From: Cycloclasticus sp.
Lineage (GTDB): Bacteria; Pseudomonadota; Gammaproteobacteria; Methylococcales; Cycloclasticaceae
DNA length: 64,000 nt
Reading direction: 5' to 3'
NCBI GenBank assembly: GCA_002700385.1
Contig: PADC01000008.1
Span: 350,485-414,484, forward strand
Positions 5,449-13,840 of the stretch are shown piece by piece. The first letter of the stretch is position 1. Each line of letters starts with the position of its first letter. The position numbers and the translations under genes are program-made. The notes below the pieces were generated by a model, which was given only the letters and a program-made list of their open reading frames with translations, was not told the origin of the DNA and did not search any database.

Positions 5449-7877
<2,429 letters not shown>

Positions 7878-8638
7878 GTTGTGATTTGCGGATAAACCTT
7901 AGTCGGTTACACTTAAACGATTGAAAGATCAAGTCATCTAACGGTTGTGATTTGCGGATAAACCTTAGTCGGTTACACTCTAATCACATTCGATAGAAAG
8001 AGCGAGAAAGTTGTGATTTGCGGATAAACCTTAGTCGGTTACACTTCAATTTCCTCTTTTTAGTTAAAAATCTAAGTTGTGATTTGCGGATAAACCTTAG
8101 TCGGTTACACTTCGGCATTAACGACACTTTTAACATAGTTTGTTGTGATTTGCGGATAAACCTTAGTCGGTTACACTCCCCTTTCGAGTTATCTATAAGA
8201 AGTTATCGTTGTGATTTGCGGATAAACCTTAGTCGGTTACACTGAATTACAGGAGATATTAAAATGAGCGAAGTTGTGATTTGCGGATAAACCTTAGTCG
8301 GTTACACTAGTCATCATCATGTATGTGACGTTTATGCTGTTGTGATTTGCGGATAAACCTTAGTCGGTTACACTTGAGAACTGATCGTTCTAAAAACCGT
8401 AACGGTTGTGATTTGCGGATAAACCTTAGTCGGTTACACTAAGCGATCAAAGAAGTCTCAGGAACCTACAGTTGTGATTTGCGGATAAACCTTAGTCGGT
8501 TACACTGATACGAGCATGGCACCATTAACAGCAAGCGTTGTGATTTGCGGATAAACCTTAGTCGGTTACACTTTCTGCTATGCAGCTCGCATCTGTACGC
8601 GCGTTGTGATTTGCGGATAAACCTTAGTCGGTTACACT
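7878..8638 (+). CRISPR. Type II-C CRISPR array, 12 repeats and 11 spacers
   Basis: Twelve identical 36-bp repeats start at 7878, 7944, 8010, 8076, 8142, 8208, 8273, 8339, 8405, 8471, 8537 and 8603. Each begins GTTGTGATTTGCGG and ends TTAGTCGGTTACACT. Ten spacers are 30 bp and one (8244-8272) is 29 bp. The plus-strand orientation follows from pairing with the tracrRNA anti-repeat at 13029-13058 and from the GTTGT start typical of type II-C repeats. Each repeat carries TTGCGG and TACACT 16 bp apart, a promoter-like pair. The array converges on cas2. No spacer matches another part of the window that I can see. Confidence 0.98.
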
Positions 8639-8686
8639 ATCCTCAATATAAGATGTTGTTTTTGTTTGCAAAGCCCCACTTTAGTT

Positions 8687-9016
8687 TTAAAAGAATTGAA
8701 GCTGAAGGGGGGCTTGTTCAATCGGTTTTCTTTTGTTTCCAAAAAACACCTCTATTCGCCCAAATTGTTTATCGGTTATTTTAATAATCCTAACTTCTCC
8801 GTCATCGGGCAAGGTTGATTTAACTCGCGAAGCATGGACATGTGCGTTCTCATCACTGCTACTGTGTCGTATATAAACAGAGTATTGCATCATTGTGAAC
8901 CCATCTTCTATTAATGATTTTCTAAACCGTGTGTATTCCTTCCTTGCTGCTTTAGTATCTGTTGGCAGGTCGAACATTACTATAATCCACATGGTATTCA
9001 GCCCGCCAAAACTCAC
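8687..9016 (-). CDS. cas2: CRISPR-associated endoribonuclease/integrase subunit Cas2
   Basis: Cas2 forms the spacer-integration complex with Cas1. The 109-residue protein has a ferredoxin-like fold with the family opening MWIIVMFDLPTDTK (the conserved Asp is in FDLP), then RKEYTRFRKSLIEDGF and MMQYSVYIRH. The start chosen is GTG at 9016, preceded by AGGTGAGG. It adds eight residues (MSFGGLNT) before the internal Met, an extension common in type II Cas2. The gene is five bases downstream of cas1. Its stop lies 48 bases from the last repeat, so cas genes and array converge. Confidence 0.95.
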   Translation of the reverse strand: MSFGGLNTMWIIVMFDLPTDTKAARKEYTRFRKSLIEDGFTMMQYSVYIRHSSSDENAHVHASRVKSTLPDDGEVRIIKITDKQFGRIEVFFGNKRKPIEQAPLQLQFF

Positions 9017-9021
9017 GGCAG

Positions 9022-9912
9022 CTACCTCACCTGCTTTACGGGGTAAACAAGGTTTTTTACCTCCTTGTTGTAGCAGCGTTTTAAATTGGCTGTTAAGTAA
9101 TGCAGCATGACCATTAGTGGCATTTTTTTATTTTCATACTTAACAGGCTCACTTAAAAGACCTAGAAGCACTTGCTTAGTTTGCTGGTTTACTTCTAGTT
9201 CACCTTGCTTAGCAAGTTGATAAACCAGTATATCCACCCATGCTCTAAAGGGCTCCATTATGTCATCAGCCAAACAGAGGGCATTATATTGATTGCTATG
9301 AAAAAGCCCGAGCGTAGGGTGTAGGCCAGCACCACAGATGCTTCTTGCTACGGCAGCCCTTATAATTGAATAACCGTAATTGAGCAGGCTATTAATGCCT
9401 TCCATATCCACATTGCGCCTAAAGTCATCTCCAAATAATAAACGCCAATAAACTTGTGCGGCAATCGCCTCGCAATTTGTGCTATCCCCTGTTTTTACTT
9501 GTGCTGCTATTCGATCTAAACGACTTGTGTTTTTACCTAAAGCAGTAAGGGTTTTTACTTGTTCAATAATTTTCTGCTGAACAATTTGCTGCCATAGGCG
9601 TTTTCGAGTGGGTTCTGTTATTGTGATTTGCTGCTTTAATATTTTATTAGGTAGTGAATGACTTTCTGCAATTGGCAAAATAACGGAGTAAGGCAAGTGC
9701 TTTTCATCGCAAAAGATAATAATCACCTTATCTTTTTGACAATGAATGATCACTTGTTGAGTTAACACGATTGCGGGGTGTTGCAAAATCAACACGCCCA
9801 AATCTTCTATCGGCACTTGCCCAACCGTTTCGCCTTGCTTATCGATTAATAATTGCTTGTTTTTTAAATGAAGGTAAGCCGCCTCACTGATATCAATGGT
9901 TCGTTTTATCAT
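9022..9912 (-). CDS. cas1: CRISPR-associated endonuclease Cas1 (type II)
   Basis: Integrase that inserts new spacers at the leader end of the array. The protein has about 296 residues from the ATG at 9912 (MIKRTIDISEAAYL); an in-frame ATG at 9933 would add seven. The N-terminal beta domain includes GVLILQHPAIVLTQQVI. The alpha-helical catalytic domain carries the metal-binding Glu in NCEAIAAQVYWRLLFG, the NYGYSIIRAAVARSICGAGLHP motif with the conserved His, and LADDIMEPFRAWVD with the conserved Asp. The start overlaps the 3' end of cas9 by about 20 bases, so translation is probably coupled. Confidence 0.96.
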   Translation of the reverse strand: MIKRTIDISEAAYLHLKNKQLLIDKQGETVGQVPIEDLGVLILQHPAIVLTQQVIIHCQKDKVIIIFCDEKHLPYSVILPIAESHSLPNKILKQQITITEPTRKRLWQQIVQQKIIEQVKTLTALGKNTSRLDRIAAQVKTGDSTNCEAIAAQVYWRLLFGDDFRRNVDMEGINSLLNYGYSIIRAAVARSICGAGLHPTLGLFHSNQYNALCLADDIMEPFRAWVDILVYQLAKQGELEVNQQTKQVLLGLLSEPVKYENKKMPLMVMLHYLTANLKRCYNKEVKNLVYPVKQVR

Positions 9913-12900
9913 CAGCACAGACCCCGATGGCATTAATGAAATGTTTCTTTAATCCGTTTCTCATTAACGCGGTAATCGACTTCCTAATACCTTCTATTTT
10001 ATTCTCAATTGTAGAAGAAGTATTCAGCCGCAATGTTAGGCCACTAGGTACTTCAAGCTTTTGAACCCGATAGTAAATCCTCCCGCCCCCATCAACGCTA
10101 ACACTCACCAAATCATTAATATGCAAGGCCATAATAAACTGCCATTCATCGCCATGGTCTACCTTAACGAGCGGTAGCTTTTTACCTTCTGGGTTTAATT
10201 TGCTTTGAATACCTTTGGCTCGATGGCTGGCTTGCATCATGGTGACAAATTCGCCTTTATACTTCCCTGTTTCTATATTTTGAATAATTTCGACATGGTG
10301 CATATTGCCATACGACATATATTTAAAGACCTTGCCTGATTTATCTTTTATACTTACTTTATTTTGCTCTAGTTTCTTTAAAGTGGTGTTTGACTGTAAA
10401 ACACGCACGCGCTTAATAGGCGTTTTGCCATCTTTATGCATTACTTTTATATTATCTGCAAAGGCTTTCTTAGGGTCGTTATCGTACTGCTCCAAATGAT
10501 TAAGCACTATTAACTTTATCGTATCATCCACTATTTGCTTCGCATTTTTTACTGTGAAGTCAGGCGTTAAGTTCTTTCGGTAAACTAAGCCACCGTGTTT
10601 TTCGATATAGCCGGCACCTGTTTCTTCATGTAATGCACCAGATAGCTTCCTATTGCTAGCATGAGAAACAATCATCTGCTCTAAACGCTCCGCAAGTTCA
10701 TTTCGTATATTTGGATAAGGCGGTTCAATTTTAAGTTTATCTCGCTCAATTTGCTTAACCGCTTTTGTGTACAAGCTCCGTGATGTGGCCGCAATAACCA
10801 CGGCGTCTATTGCATGATGTCTATGATCTGTTCGATCTTTTTTCTCCACTTCACCAATAAGGTCATTAAAGCCCCACTGGTGTCGGATTTGCGAAACAAC
10901 CGAACCTTTTGTGACAGAGACATTACTATTCCCAACAAGCTCCGCCATATAATCTAAAGCAAGTTTTGAAATATAGCGGGTATCGTTTAACTGAGAGGAT
11001 ATAAAATCCCTTTTTTGCAAGTCTGCTTCTGTTTGATGAAAACGTTTTACTTTTGAATCCACACCTTTCCATTTACTAATTGCCTGAGTGATTTGCATCC
11101 ACTTTTCTACATTACCACTCCACGCATCTTTTGGTGTTCGATCGCCTTTATTTCGGTTCTCTGCTACATAACAAAGTACTTTGTTCATATAAGAATCATC
11201 AAGGCTTTTCTTAAACGGTAAGATGTGGTCTATTTCAACGGAAGATGTAAAAACAGAATGAAGCGGAATCATTTCGTTACTGTAGGCGCAACGGCGATTT
11301 TGCTCTTCCCAAAGACGGTATTTTATCTTGTCGTCATAACTTGGGTATTTACCAAGATTCAAGCCTTTGTATGCTTCAACAGCGCCTTCATTCGCTTTTT
11401 TGTTTTTATTCTGCCGAGCTTCGTTTTCCTTATAACGCTTGGTATTCATTTCCAGATCGCGCGCCATTTCTATACGAATGATGTCGGGCTTACCGTATTC
11501 CTTTATAAGTGCGTTAACCACCCGTTTTAATTCGTGCATGGCTTTGTTTACTATCGGGTTGCTGGTTTCAAGCGGCGCACCAAGTTTATTACTAACTTCC
11601 TGCTCTTTGATTTCATCACTATAGCCTGCTGCTTGTAACGCGCCTAACTCGCCAGTCTGTTGGTCTTTTTTACTGTATATAAGCCCTTGCTGTAAAAAAG
11701 GAAGTAGTTTGTTAATCGCTTTTAATGAAAGGTTGCTGTGGCTCGGTTCAAACTCAAGTAAACATAACTTTATAGCCACTTCAGCACCCAAGCCCCAATG
11801 TTTAATAAGCCTTGTTTTTAAAGCCGACTTTTTCTTAATTGATAACAGGTCTTCTACTAAATTAAATTGCTCTTTATCTGAATAATTATCCCACCGGTCT
11901 TTTAACACATTCCTAATTTCACACGCTGTGATATTACCTTTTAGGTTTTTTGCTTCTAAATTAATTTTGGTTAATTTGTCTAAACCTAATAGTTTTTTTA
12001 ACGCTGTTATTGTGATTTTTGGGTGTTGTTCAAAATATTCTATTAACTTCTGCCTATCTGCTTGAGTAAAAGCTAACCATTGATCTGTTTGGCGCTCAAA
12101 ATACTGCAAATTATTCACATCTTGAAGATATCTAAAACGCTGCACCTCAAGCCTTGCCATTGATGCTCGATTGTTTTTAGGCTCTAGCGAACATTTGCCA
12201 ATTCTGTCTTTTTTAAGCTTTAAAGGGCGCTGATAAAAAATAATTTCTTTTACCCCTTTGTTGTCCTCCATAAAATCAGCTGGAAGGTCTGAAAAAAATT
12301 GTTGTTGCTGCTGCCATATTAAATCAAGCTCGTCTTTATACATGGCTCTATCAGTACGAAGGTGGCCACCTTCATGACTTCTATTGCGTTTACAAACCCC
12401 TTTATCAAGTTGATGAAGATATTCCCCAAGAGTTCGCGCGCCTGATAGAGTAATGGCTTTTCTTACTTCGCTAATATCAGCTTTAAAAGCCCCTTCTTCT
12501 TTGTCTTGCGTAGGTTTATCTTCAATTTCATTCAGGTAAGCGATAGTGTCAGGGTCATCAATCAAGTCACCAGCGACTTGCTTTTTTGTACTTAAAAAAC
12601 CACGCCTAGCAACAAAGTGTAGTAACACACGCCCTAGTTCATAGCGCGTTAGCTTTTCATCTAAGGCTTTACTTCTTAGTTCGTAAGGGTCACCCAGCTC
12701 ATTTAAAATGATTTCAGGTTGATGGTTTCTTAGTAATTCGTTTGATAACAAATCTAAGGAGACTAAATAGTTAAGCATCCGCTGCTTGCGCCTTGCTCTA
12801 CGTTGTAGCACTCGCCTGCCAAGTCGCATATCACGCCGCTTTACATTCTTTGGTGTTGGAACTTTTTCTTCGACTGCTTTAGTGAAAATTCTGCTTCCAA

Positions 12901-12997
12901 TATCAATAATACTATTAGCTTCACCATTAACTTCTTCAAGTAAAGCCCAGCCTATAGAATTGCTGCCTAAATCTAGTCCTAATATTTTCTTGCCCAT
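9893..12997 (-). CDS. cas9: CRISPR-associated endonuclease Cas9, compact type II-C
   Basis: RNA-guided double-strand DNA nuclease. At 1034 residues it falls in the compact II-C size range, between C. jejuni (984) and N. meningitidis (1082). Domains in order: RuvC-I with D9 (ILGLDLGSNSIGWA), Arg-rich bridge helix (53-74), helical REC lobe (about 80-490), RuvC-II with E510 (IIRIEMARDL), HNH with D590-H591 and N614 (EIDHILPF, AENRNKGDR), RuvC-III with H728 and D731 (DHRHHAIDAVVIA), and WED/PAM-interacting region (about 770-1034). All catalytic residues are present, so it should be active. There is no csn2 or cas4, which supports subtype II-C. AGGG lies seven bases before the ATG. The PAM cannot be read from the sequence. 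Confidence 0.98.
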   Translation of the reverse strand: MGKKILGLDLGSNSIGWALLEEVNGEANSIIDIGSRIFTKAVEEKVPTPKNVKRRDMRLGRRVLQRRARRKQRMLNYLVSLDLLSNELLRNHQPEIILNELGDPYELRSKALDEKLTRYELGRVLLHFVARRGFLSTKKQVAGDLIDDPDTIAYLNEIEDKPTQDKEEGAFKADISEVRKAITLSGARTLGEYLHQLDKGVCKRNRSHEGGHLRTDRAMYKDELDLIWQQQQQFFSDLPADFMEDNKGVKEIIFYQRPLKLKKDRIGKCSLEPKNNRASMARLEVQRFRYLQDVNNLQYFERQTDQWLAFTQADRQKLIEYFEQHPKITITALKKLLGLDKLTKINLEAKNLKGNITACEIRNVLKDRWDNYSDKEQFNLVEDLLSIKKKSALKTRLIKHWGLGAEVAIKLCLLEFEPSHSNLSLKAINKLLPFLQQGLIYSKKDQQTGELGALQAAGYSDEIKEQEVSNKLGAPLETSNPIVNKAMHELKRVVNALIKEYGKPDIIRIEMARDLEMNTKRYKENEARQNKNKKANEGAVEAYKGLNLGKYPSYDDKIKYRLWEEQNRRCAYSNEMIPLHSVFTSSVEIDHILPFKKSLDDSYMNKVLCYVAENRNKGDRTPKDAWSGNVEKWMQITQAISKWKGVDSKVKRFHQTEADLQKRDFISSQLNDTRYISKLALDYMAELVGNSNVSVTKGSVVSQIRHQWGFNDLIGEVEKKDRTDHRHHAIDAVVIAATSRSLYTKAVKQIERDKLKIEPPYPNIRNELAERLEQMIVSHASNRKLSGALHEETGAGYIEKHGGLVYRKNLTPDFTVKNAKQIVDDTIKLIVLNHLEQYDNDPKKAFADNIKVMHKDGKTPIKRVRVLQSNTTLKKLEQNKVSIKDKSGKVFKYMSYGNMHHVEIIQNIETGKYKGEFVTMMQASHRAKGIQSKLNPEGKKLPLVKVDHGDEWQFIMALHINDLVSVSVDGGGRIYYRVQKLEVPSGLTLRLNTSSTIENKIEGIRKSITALMRNGLKKHFINAIGVCADDKTNH

Positions 12998-13019
12998 TTA
13001 TCTTCCCTGAATATATAAT
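12990..13019 (+). promoter_or_regulatory. Promoter of the tracrRNA
   Basis: A perfect -10 TATAAT at 13014-13019 lies 18 bp downstream of TTGCCC (12990-12995), which overlaps the cas9 start codon on the other strand. The predicted start, about 13026, is just before the first base of the anti-repeat at 13029. The cas9 and tracrRNA 5' ends are therefore only about 30 bases apart. Confidence 0.65.
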
Positions 13020-13028
13020 ATTTTTAAT

Positions 13029-13134
13029 AGTGTAACCGACTAAGGCTTATCGAATTGCTTTTCATACCAATGAAATTGATTTTTCGTAGGCAACGCTTTC
13101 AAGCGACCAAAGCCCTCCCAGCGGGGGCTTTTTA
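13029..13134 (+). ncRNA. tracrRNA for Cas9
   Basis: The anti-repeat AGTGTAACCGACTAAGG (from 13029) pairs with the 3' half of the repeat. It continues through CTTATC (one A-C mismatch at repeat base 19) and, after a bulge of repeat bases 11-13 (GCG), GAATTGC (13052-13058) pairs with repeat bases 4-10 using G-U pairs. Downstream are hairpins TTTCAT/ATGAAA (13060-13075) and CGCTT/AAGCG (13094-13105). A terminator hairpin AGCCC/GGGCT (13111-13129) is followed by a T run. This is the lower stem-bulge-upper stem plan of known tracrRNAs. It is divergent from cas9. Ends are predicted, not mapped. Confidence 0.9.
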
Positions 13135-13231
13135 TTATGTTCGATATTACTCACGTTTAAAAAAGCGTTTTTCACAGTTTTTTATGATGAAAGAGCTATG
13201 ACGAGTTTACCCATTTCATCAAACAAGTGGT

Positions 13232-13726
13232 TTGAATAAAATTATTTATTATCTCCCCGGCAGAGATGGAAAAATCACAACTGGCCTTGGCGAAGAAATA
13301 ACCTCTTTAGAATATGGGATTGAAGGTCGCTAAACACCCTGATTATACAAAAACCTTTCCCTCCAAGAACAACTTGATTTAATTGCAAGTGGTCTGCAAA
13401 AAAATTTTGGAATGACGTTTCAAAAGTATTTCTGTATCTTATGATTGCTACCTGTTAATGCATATCGTATATAATCTAAATCCTTACCCGGGAGTTATCT
13501 TACTAATCTCGCCTGTTCTTAGTGGCGTTATAAACAAAGCTACTTTACGTTACTATTGCCCAGCTTGACCCATAAACTTATAAAGCTGGTAGAAACAAAA
13601 CATTTTCCAGTCCCAAACCATATTGAAATTCATGTTGATGAAAAGTACTGGCAAAACCCGTACGAAAGAGTCATTCAATTTAGTGATACTGTTCAGGGTA
13701 AATATGTTGCTCGCAATTACGTTTAA
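13232..13726 (+). pseudogene. Decayed pseudogene, probably of a small alpha/beta-hydrolase-like protein
   Basis: No intact gene is present, but conserved-looking protein fragments follow one another in different frames. They are: NKIIYYLPGRDGKITTGLGE (from 13232, ending at TAA 13331), LSLQEQLDLIASGLQKNFG, SYDCYLLMHIVYNLNPYPG continuing to LLISPVLSGVINKATL, and HFPVPNHIEIHVDEKYWQ to a stop at 13724. Order and content look like one roughly 150-residue protein broken by frameshifts and stops. The hydrolase guess rests on the SY..YLLMH nucleophile-like segment and the LLISPVL strand. No ATG start is seen. The family name is tentative; the pseudogene status is well supported. The stretch 13140-13231 holds nothing I recognise. 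Confidence 0.65.
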
Positions 13727-13766: not shown

Positions 13767-13840
13767 TGGAGGCTGAGAGCGGAATCGAACCGCTGTACAC
13801 GGCTTTGCAGGCCGCTGCATAACCACTCTGCCACTCAGCC
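13767..13840 (-). tRNA. tRNA-Cys (GCA)
   Basis: Full cloverleaf on the minus strand. Acceptor GGCTGAG pairs with CTCAGCC, the D-arm is GTGG...TTATGCAGC, the anticodon loop CTGCAAA has GCA, and the T-arm is GCGGTTCGATTCCGC. The discriminator is U and CCA is encoded (13769-13767). It lies about 50 bases after tRNA-Gly. The order pgsA, tRNA-Gly, tRNA-Cys is that of E. coli glyW-cysT; the E. coli third gene, leuZ, is absent here. Confidence 0.97.

What the first reader, a model, noticed from the sequence alone, without database searches (positions are those of the whole stretch)
7878..13134. Complete, apparently functional compact type II-C CRISPR-Cas9 locus
Array, cas2, cas1, a 1034-residue Cas9 with all RuvC and HNH catalytic residues, and a recognisable tracrRNA are all present in 5.3 kb, with no csn2 or cas4. 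The small Cas9 is of an unfamiliar sequence, and its PAM-interacting region (about 850-1034) gives no hint of the PAM. This is the most distinctive accessory system in the window.
Basis: partly seen in the sequence, partly recalled or inferred. Interest (0 to 1): 0.7.

Follow-up and report, generated by a model that had tools for sequence, protein, structure and literature searches.

The report
Complete phage-fighting type II-C CRISPR-Cas9 locus
This stretch holds a complete bacterial Cas9 immune system, two of whose stored memories match known viruses perfectly and give a first hint of the short DNA tag the enzyme looks for; the kind of system itself is well known.

Summary
Observation confirmed. 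7878-13131 holds 12 identical 36-nt repeats with 11 spacers, cas2, cas1, a 1034-aa Cas9 with intact catalytic residues, and a divergent tracrRNA with terminator. Subtype II-C is supported: no csn2 or cas4, closest solved relatives ThermoCas9, Nme1Cas9, GeoCas9. It belongs to a patchy, horizontally moving Cas9 clade and sits at a tRNA-Cys insertion hotspot that is empty in five of seven genus genomes examined. (2) The last 60 residues of Cas9, which hold the PAM hairpin, are among the most variable stretches between orthologs. (3) New spacers seem to enter beside cas2: decayed repeats lie at the other end in 6 of 6 informative arrays, and a motif stands at fixed distance beside cas2 in 14 arrays. 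This polarity is already reported for F. columnare II-C. An ordinary kind of system with a testable PAM.

The parts
7878..8638 (+). CRISPR array, 12 identical 36-nt repeats and 11 spacers; crRNA sense is the + strand (from tracrRNA complementarity); oldest end at 7878, newest at 8638 (age order inferred from relatives)
8441..8470 (+). spacer 9; 30/30 match in IMGVR_UViG_3300022934_001304, 3' flank GAGTCAAGAATAGA
8573..8602 (+). spacer 11 (cas2-proximal, newest by inference); 30/30 match in IMGVR_UViG_3300046449_000213 and 3300045790_002272, 3' flank AAAACTACTATGTG
8639..8686 (+). probable leader between array and cas2; A at +13 (8651) and T at +19 (8657) are shared by 14 of 14 arrays, A at +12 by 13 and G at +20 by 11
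   Evidence: 0 of 5000 random registers as conserved
8687..9016 (-). cas2, 109 aa
9022..9912 (-). cas1, type II; start at 9912 favoured over 9933 because relatives align from residue 8
9893..12997 (-). cas9, 1034 aa, RuvC and HNH residues intact
9896..10075 (-). Cas9 residues 975-1034: end of the PAM hairpin and the tail behind it, variable between orthologs
10052..10054 (-). codon of Glu982, aligned with Nme1Cas9 H1024 (reader of PAM position 5)
12990..13019 (+). promoter-like TTGCCC-18-TATAAT before the tracrRNA (10 of 12; 2 sites found against 1.2 expected, so weak)
13029..13131 (+). tracrRNA: antirepeat from 13029, conserved middle part and hairpins, terminator 13109-13131

Best explanation
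A complete and probably working type II-C CRISPR-Cas9 immune system, gained horizontally at a tRNA-Cys hotspot. Cas1-Cas2 insert new spacers at the cas2-proximal end, beside a leader motif in the 48-bp gap before cas2 (inferred from repeat decay in relatives and a conserved motif). crRNAs are made in the opposite sense to cas9, pair with the divergently encoded tracrRNA (complementarity shown; the RNAs themselves inferred) and guide the 1034-aa Cas9 to cut phage DNA (inferred from the family). Two spacers match phage contigs (shown). The PAM is provisionally N4CNA, 3' of the protospacer; reading of the C by Glu982 on the PAM hairpin is inferred.
For: Gene and repeat anatomy. 30/30 matches of spacers 9 and 11 to IMG/VR contigs; proteins from the spacer-9 contig and from one of the two spacer-11 contigs fall in phage families (head, tail, tail spike, internal virion protein; RecE-like exonuclease, methyltransferase). 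Own repeat:antirepeat pairs beat swapped ones over 10 loci (means -43.7 and -34.9 kcal/mol; 0 of 20000 permutations as good). Same gene order in relatives. Departing repeats at or next to the crRNA 5' end in all 6 arrays that have any, of 15 examined. Leader motif. Empty site in 5 of 7 genus genomes examined; gene tree at odds with kinship: nearest ortholog, 78%, is in another family (G483), and same-genus G005 pairs with a Nitrosomonas MAG, both with support 97. The own genome shows no array match but the array and the tracrRNA at E 0.1, so no self-target was seen.
Against: No RNA data. The PAM rests on two independent protospacers; 6 of 8 scanned spacers had no full-length hit and 3 (1, 3, 6) were not scanned. 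A weaker match of spacer 6 in genome G510 (24 of 29) has A, not C, at position 5; it covers a ribosome-site-plus-start-codon stretch and, over 301 genomes, is at chance level. No repeat-embedded promoter reached the scan's threshold, though II-C arrays elsewhere use them. For several loci a foreign repeat fits as well as or better than the own one, the window's among them. Two clade members are decayed (G043; Nitrosomonas MAG). The window's own array has no departing repeat, so its polarity is borrowed from relatives.
Confidence: 0.9

Rival explanations
1. The system is as described, but the shared C at position 5 and A at position 7 of the two flanks are coincidence and the real PAM differs (for instance a purine at position 5, as in Nme1 relatives with H or N at that site).
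For: Only two independent protospacers. Glu is not among the D, H, N groups of PMC9433092 (passages). The profile register at the hairpin is uncertain and close orthologs have M, S, G, Q or D there. The weak G510 match of spacer 6 has A at position 5.
Against: At about 20% C, two C by chance is about 1 in 25. An acidic residue (D) at that site goes with C at position 5 in PMC9433092. The repeat itself has T at position 5, so N4C would spare the array.
Confidence: 0.4
2. Conventional polarity: leader and array promoter lie on the icd side (7681-7877) and new spacers enter at 7878.
For: That gap is longer (about 200 bp), and in most CRISPR types the leader lies upstream of the transcript (recalled).
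Against: All six informative relatives have decayed repeats at that end; the 3' flank carries a fixed-distance motif (top-five information 8.13 bits, 14 rows) and the 5' flank does not (2.82 bits, 13 rows); the two phage matches are the first and third spacers from the other end.
Confidence: 0.07
3. A relict or regulatory locus: intact to the eye but no longer used for phage defence.
For: Decayed orthologs occur; no expression data.
Against: ORFs open, all 12 repeats identical, spacers 9 and 11 match virus contigs exactly.
Confidence: 0.05

Closest known systems
Neisseria meningitidis Nme1Cas9 / Nme2Cas9 (type II-C)
   Same: Whole-protein fold (best row 6jdv, Z 29.4, rmsd 14.5, 740 aligned; rows within 1 Z are tied); C-terminal profile match E 3e-8
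   Different: About 28% identical; Glu982 where Nme1 has H1024; provisional PAM N4CNA against N4GATT and N4CC (PMC9433092 passages)
ThermoCas9 / GeoCas9
   Same: Top of the profile search with Nme1 (706 and 694 bits); ThermoCas9 entry title names an NNNNCCA PAM, also C at position 5
   Different: About 27-30% identical; the C-terminal profile aligns only over its first 91-105 positions with them
Flavobacterium columnare type II-C (PMC8092290, passages read)
   Same: Transcription toward the leader, repeat base 36 leader-proximal, so new spacers enter at the downstream end
   Different: Has parDE between cas9 and the array; PAM NNNNNTAAA
Orthologs in G483 (78%), G004, G005, Nitrosomonas MAG JAUXRH010000130.1, G383, G285
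   Same: Related tracrRNA (not found in G285's 320-nt stretch) and, where the locus is whole, the order cas9-cas1-cas2-array
   Different: C-terminal PAM region differs; the Nitrosomonas locus is broken

Membership tests
CRISPR-Cas type II | Cas9 with RuvC and HNH nuclease motifs | tested here: met
   TIGR01865 646.5 bits; HNH_4 and RuvC_III Pfam above cut-off; catalytic positions invariant in 19 sequences
CRISPR-Cas type II | tracrRNA complementary to the repeat | tested here: met
   -39.5 kcal/mol duplex; 0 of 20000 permutations; duplex of -37 kcal/mol or better in 12 of 15 upstream regions
CRISPR-Cas type II | crRNA and tracrRNA expressed and bound by Cas9 | not testable with these tools
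   no RNA data
Subtype II-C | only cas9, cas1, cas2; no csn2, no cas4 | tested here: met
   No further minus-strand ORF of 60 aa or more between icd and tRNA-Cys; the three ORFs scanned are Cas9, Cas1, Cas2. Small antisense ORFs were not scanned
Subtype II-C | Cas9 groups with II-C enzymes by similarity | tested here: met
   Profile scores 643-706 bits for ThermoCas9, Nme1Cas9, GeoCas9, HpaCas9; St1Cas9 380, SaCas9 353. Subtype labels of these enzymes are mostly recalled
Subtype II-C | place in a tree with labelled II-A, II-B, II-C rows | tested here: inconclusive
   38-row tree holds no labelled II-A row; the clade of 15 rows has support 100
Subtype II-C | repeat-embedded promoters | tested here: inconclusive
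   None reached the scan's threshold; TTGCGG-16-TACACT can be read by eye in each repeat
Subtype II-A | csn2 present | tested here: not met
   ORF list
Subtype II-B | cas4 present | tested here: not met
   ORF list

The most novel reading that the evidence does not exclude
This clade of compact Cas9s (1,018-1,070 aa in the complete rows seen), spread by horizontal transfer through Gammaproteobacteria, keeps one guide-RNA design while its C-terminal PAM region keeps changing; the window's enzyme reads C at position 5 through a glutamate, a PAM code outside the D, H, N groups described for Nme1 relatives, giving N4CNA. (Probability lowered from 0.35 after one search showed that the tail behind the hairpin, more than the hairpin itself, carries the divergence.)
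Probability: 0.3. Interest if true: 0.5.

Novelty: new member of a known kind. Interest (0 to 1): 0.35.

Why it matters
It adds a compact Cas9 clade for which I found no study, with a concrete and cheaply testable PAM, natural targets and a ready guide-RNA design. Orthologs with similar tracrRNAs but different PAM regions are good material for linking residues to PAMs, and the leader motif makes spacer-acquisition tests direct.

Tried and rejected
Array against phage records (12 records, E 0.8, 87.5% over 32 nt) and plasmid records (5 records, E 0.8-9): taken as chance. Six relatives' arrays against phages: nothing below E 0.07. Spacer 5 core hit IMGVR_UViG_3300021958_002823 over 18 nt, but the full spacer has 9 mismatches there: rejected. 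Array against 18 genus genomes, 301 of the order and 398 of the phylum: matches in 5, 39 and 1 (the own genome), thresholds E 0.1, 0.01 and 0.0001. Judged by query range in the listed rows, these run over repeats, except one: spacer 6 in G510, 24 of 29, flank GTTGAAGA (position 5 A). Fetched and read, it is a ribosome-site and start-codon stretch; not counted as a protospacer, but it speaks against N4C if real. Two mixed rows (G465, G516) held no spacer match within 9 mismatches. The 21-nt match in G006 (E 0.05) did not extend. phmmer of the C-terminal 255 aa alone found no Cas9; only the profile did. Fold comparison of that part: Z 8-10 with many Cas9s but rmsd mostly about 12, so it cannot fix the residue register. 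No direct repeat of the tRNA-Cys end (words of 10-12 nt) in 7001-13600, so no att site shown. Conventional array polarity considered and rejected. My first wording that the PAM hairpin itself is the most variable part was too strong and was mended.
Full report
What is there. The finding is accurate. Between icd (NADP isocitrate dehydrogenase, 5449-7680 minus) and tRNA-Cys (13767-13840 minus) lies a CRISPR array of 12 identical 36-nt repeats and 11 spacers (7878-8638); then on the minus strand cas2 (8687-9016), cas1 (9022-9912) and cas9 (9893-12997, 1034 aa); and on the plus strand, diverging from cas9, a tracrRNA. The cas1 start at 9912 is preferred because relatives align from residue 8 of the longer reading.

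Cas9. NCBIfam calls it Cas9 at 646.5 bits. A profile of 19 sequences finds ThermoCas9 (706 bits), Nme1Cas9 (705), GeoCas9 (694) and HpaCas9 (643) well above St1Cas9 (380) and SaCas9 (353) (names of entries). The AlphaFold2 model (mean pLDDT 79.6, pTM 0.45) has Nme1Cas9 as its first row (6jdv, Z 29.4, rmsd 14.5 over 740 residues, 28% identity); the next two rows are tied with it. The positions recalled as catalytic are invariant.

Guide RNAs. The antirepeat at 13029 pairs with the plus-strand repeat at -39.5 kcal/mol, so crRNAs run in plus sense. A terminator follows at 13109-13131 (0.0 expected by shuffling); a TTGCCC-18-TATAAT box precedes it (2 promoter-like sites found, 1.2 expected). A duplex of -37 kcal/mol or better lies upstream of cas9 in 12 of 15 loci tested; in L078, L133 and L135 none was found within 320 nt, and for L022 and L012 the window's repeat was used. 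Across 10 loci own repeat and antirepeat fit better than swapped ones taken together (means -43.7 and -34.9 kcal/mol; 0 of 20000 permutations as good). The rows are related, two pairs share one repeat, and for the window, L020, L024 and L134 a foreign repeat scores better than the own one.

Targets and PAM. Eight of 11 spacers were scanned as 18-22-nt cores in IMG/VR (spacers 11, 10, 9, 8, 7, 2, 5, 4; not 1, 3, 6). Two match over all 30 nt: spacer 11 in IMGVR_UViG_3300046449_000213 and 3300045790_002272 (same flank, counted once), spacer 9 in 3300022934_001304. Of eight proteins scanned from the first and third of these contigs, most fall in phage families of known role (major head, tail, tail spike, internal virion protein; RecE-like exonuclease, methyltransferase; two are of unknown function, among them the one that holds protospacer 9). 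The 3' flanks are AAAACTACTATGTG and GAGTCAAGAATAGA: C at position 5 and A at position 7 in both, so N4CNA, provisionally; two sites cannot fix a PAM. A weak match of spacer 6 in G510 (24 of 29) has A at position 5 and is held to be chance. The C-terminal profile of 11 orthologs aligns with the Nme1 PAM domain (E 3e-8) and puts Glu982 opposite H1024. In PMC9433092 (passages read) Asp at that site goes with C at position 5, His or Asn with a purine. In Nme2Cas9 D1028 and R1033 are the PAM-interacting residues (PMC9849140, passages). The alignment was made before the flanks were seen, but no prediction was written down first.

Variable C-terminal region. Against the nearest ortholog (G483) identity is 81% over residues 1-780, 77% over 781-974 and 42% over 975-1034; against G004 76, 79 and 45%. 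In a scan of 975 windows of 60 residues, the last window ranks 1st to 14th lowest in seven orthologs (G483, G004, L077, L078, L023, L024, L079), but the hairpin 973-991 is 42-63% identical and the tail 992-1034 only 23-44%: the tail carries more of the divergence. Ordinary drift of a protein end is a fair reading. The residue in the Glu982 column is M in L020, S in L022, G in L077, E in L078, D in L023, L024, L079, L082 and L083, E in L080, Q in L081 and D in G483, L133, L134 and L135.

Where spacers enter. Of 15 arrays, six have a repeat that departs from the consensus (L132, L020, L077, L078, L079, L081); in all six the departures are in the first or second repeat at the crRNA 5' end, far from cas2. 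In 14 arrays (L021, with no cas genes, left out) the flank next to cas2 carries A at +13 (14 of 14), T at +19 (14), A at +12 (13) and G at +20 (11), with 0 of 5000 random registers as conserved, also after dropping three near-duplicates; the other flank, 13 rows, shows nothing alike. So new spacers probably enter beside cas2, and the two phage-matching spacers are the first and third from that end. PMC8092290 (passages) describes this polarity for F. columnare II-C, so it is not new in kind.

Movement. Cas9 matches occur in 28 of 369 genomes of the class at E 0.001, own included and remote Cas9s too, and in 3 of 18 genomes of the genus, own included. The nearest ortholog is in another family of the order; same-genus G005 pairs with a Nitrosomonas MAG. 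Of seven other genus genomes whose icd to tRNA-Cys gap was fetched, five (G014, G001, G017, G012, G004) have the two alignments 136-356 bp apart; G015 has about 2 kb with an integrase-like ORF and two short ORFs; G007 shows no icd within the 5.5 kb fetched. G004 carries its CRISPR locus on another contig. GC is 39.2% against 42.7% for the window. The site looks like an insertion hotspot; no att repeat was found.

Verdict. A real, complete, probably working II-C system: a new member of a known kind. Searches for print: Cycloclasticus with CRISPR (23 papers, 15 seen as a listing, none by title on this), Nitrosomonas with Cas9 (none); the 79-ortholog catalogue PMC7606464 has none of Nitrosomonas, Cycloclasticus or Methylo- in its main text (supplements not seen).

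Noticed in passing
L132 (G483) array, spacer 37; L143 1501-1530: In the nearest ortholog's host, spacer 37 matches its own CTP-synthase-like gene (named by eye) 30/30, with T at position 5 of the flank; in sister genome G525 the same site, also 30/30, has C there. Spacers 24 and 25 (identical) match an own SMC-like gene with one mismatch, flank A at position 5.
   Followed up: partly
L025 (G043) 6298-7111: Decayed locus of the same clade: the first 155 residues of Cas9 and the last part of Cas1 are left, on overlapping ORFs; no cas2 ORF matched.
   Followed up: no
L012 (Nitrosomonas MAG) 6001-10304: Cas9 split over two ORFs in different frames, with a transposase-like ORF after it and no cas1 or cas2 match.
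   Followed up: no
L021 (G015) 8597-8698: Two repeats of the same kind in a genome with no Cas9 match at E 0.001: an orphan remnant beside a transposase-like ORF.
   Followed up: no
L130 (G102) and L062 (G242): Cas9s of 1284 and 1260 aa near this compact clade in the tree; Cas1 and Cas2 of L130 are 44% and 59% identical to the window's.
   Followed up: no
13170-13725: Broken coding debris between the tracrRNA and tRNA-Cys, stops in all frames; possibly an old hydrolase-like gene, by eye only.
   Followed up: no
L024 (G040) upstream of cas9: The tracrRNA region seems to hold an internal duplication after the antirepeat (by eye).
   Followed up: no
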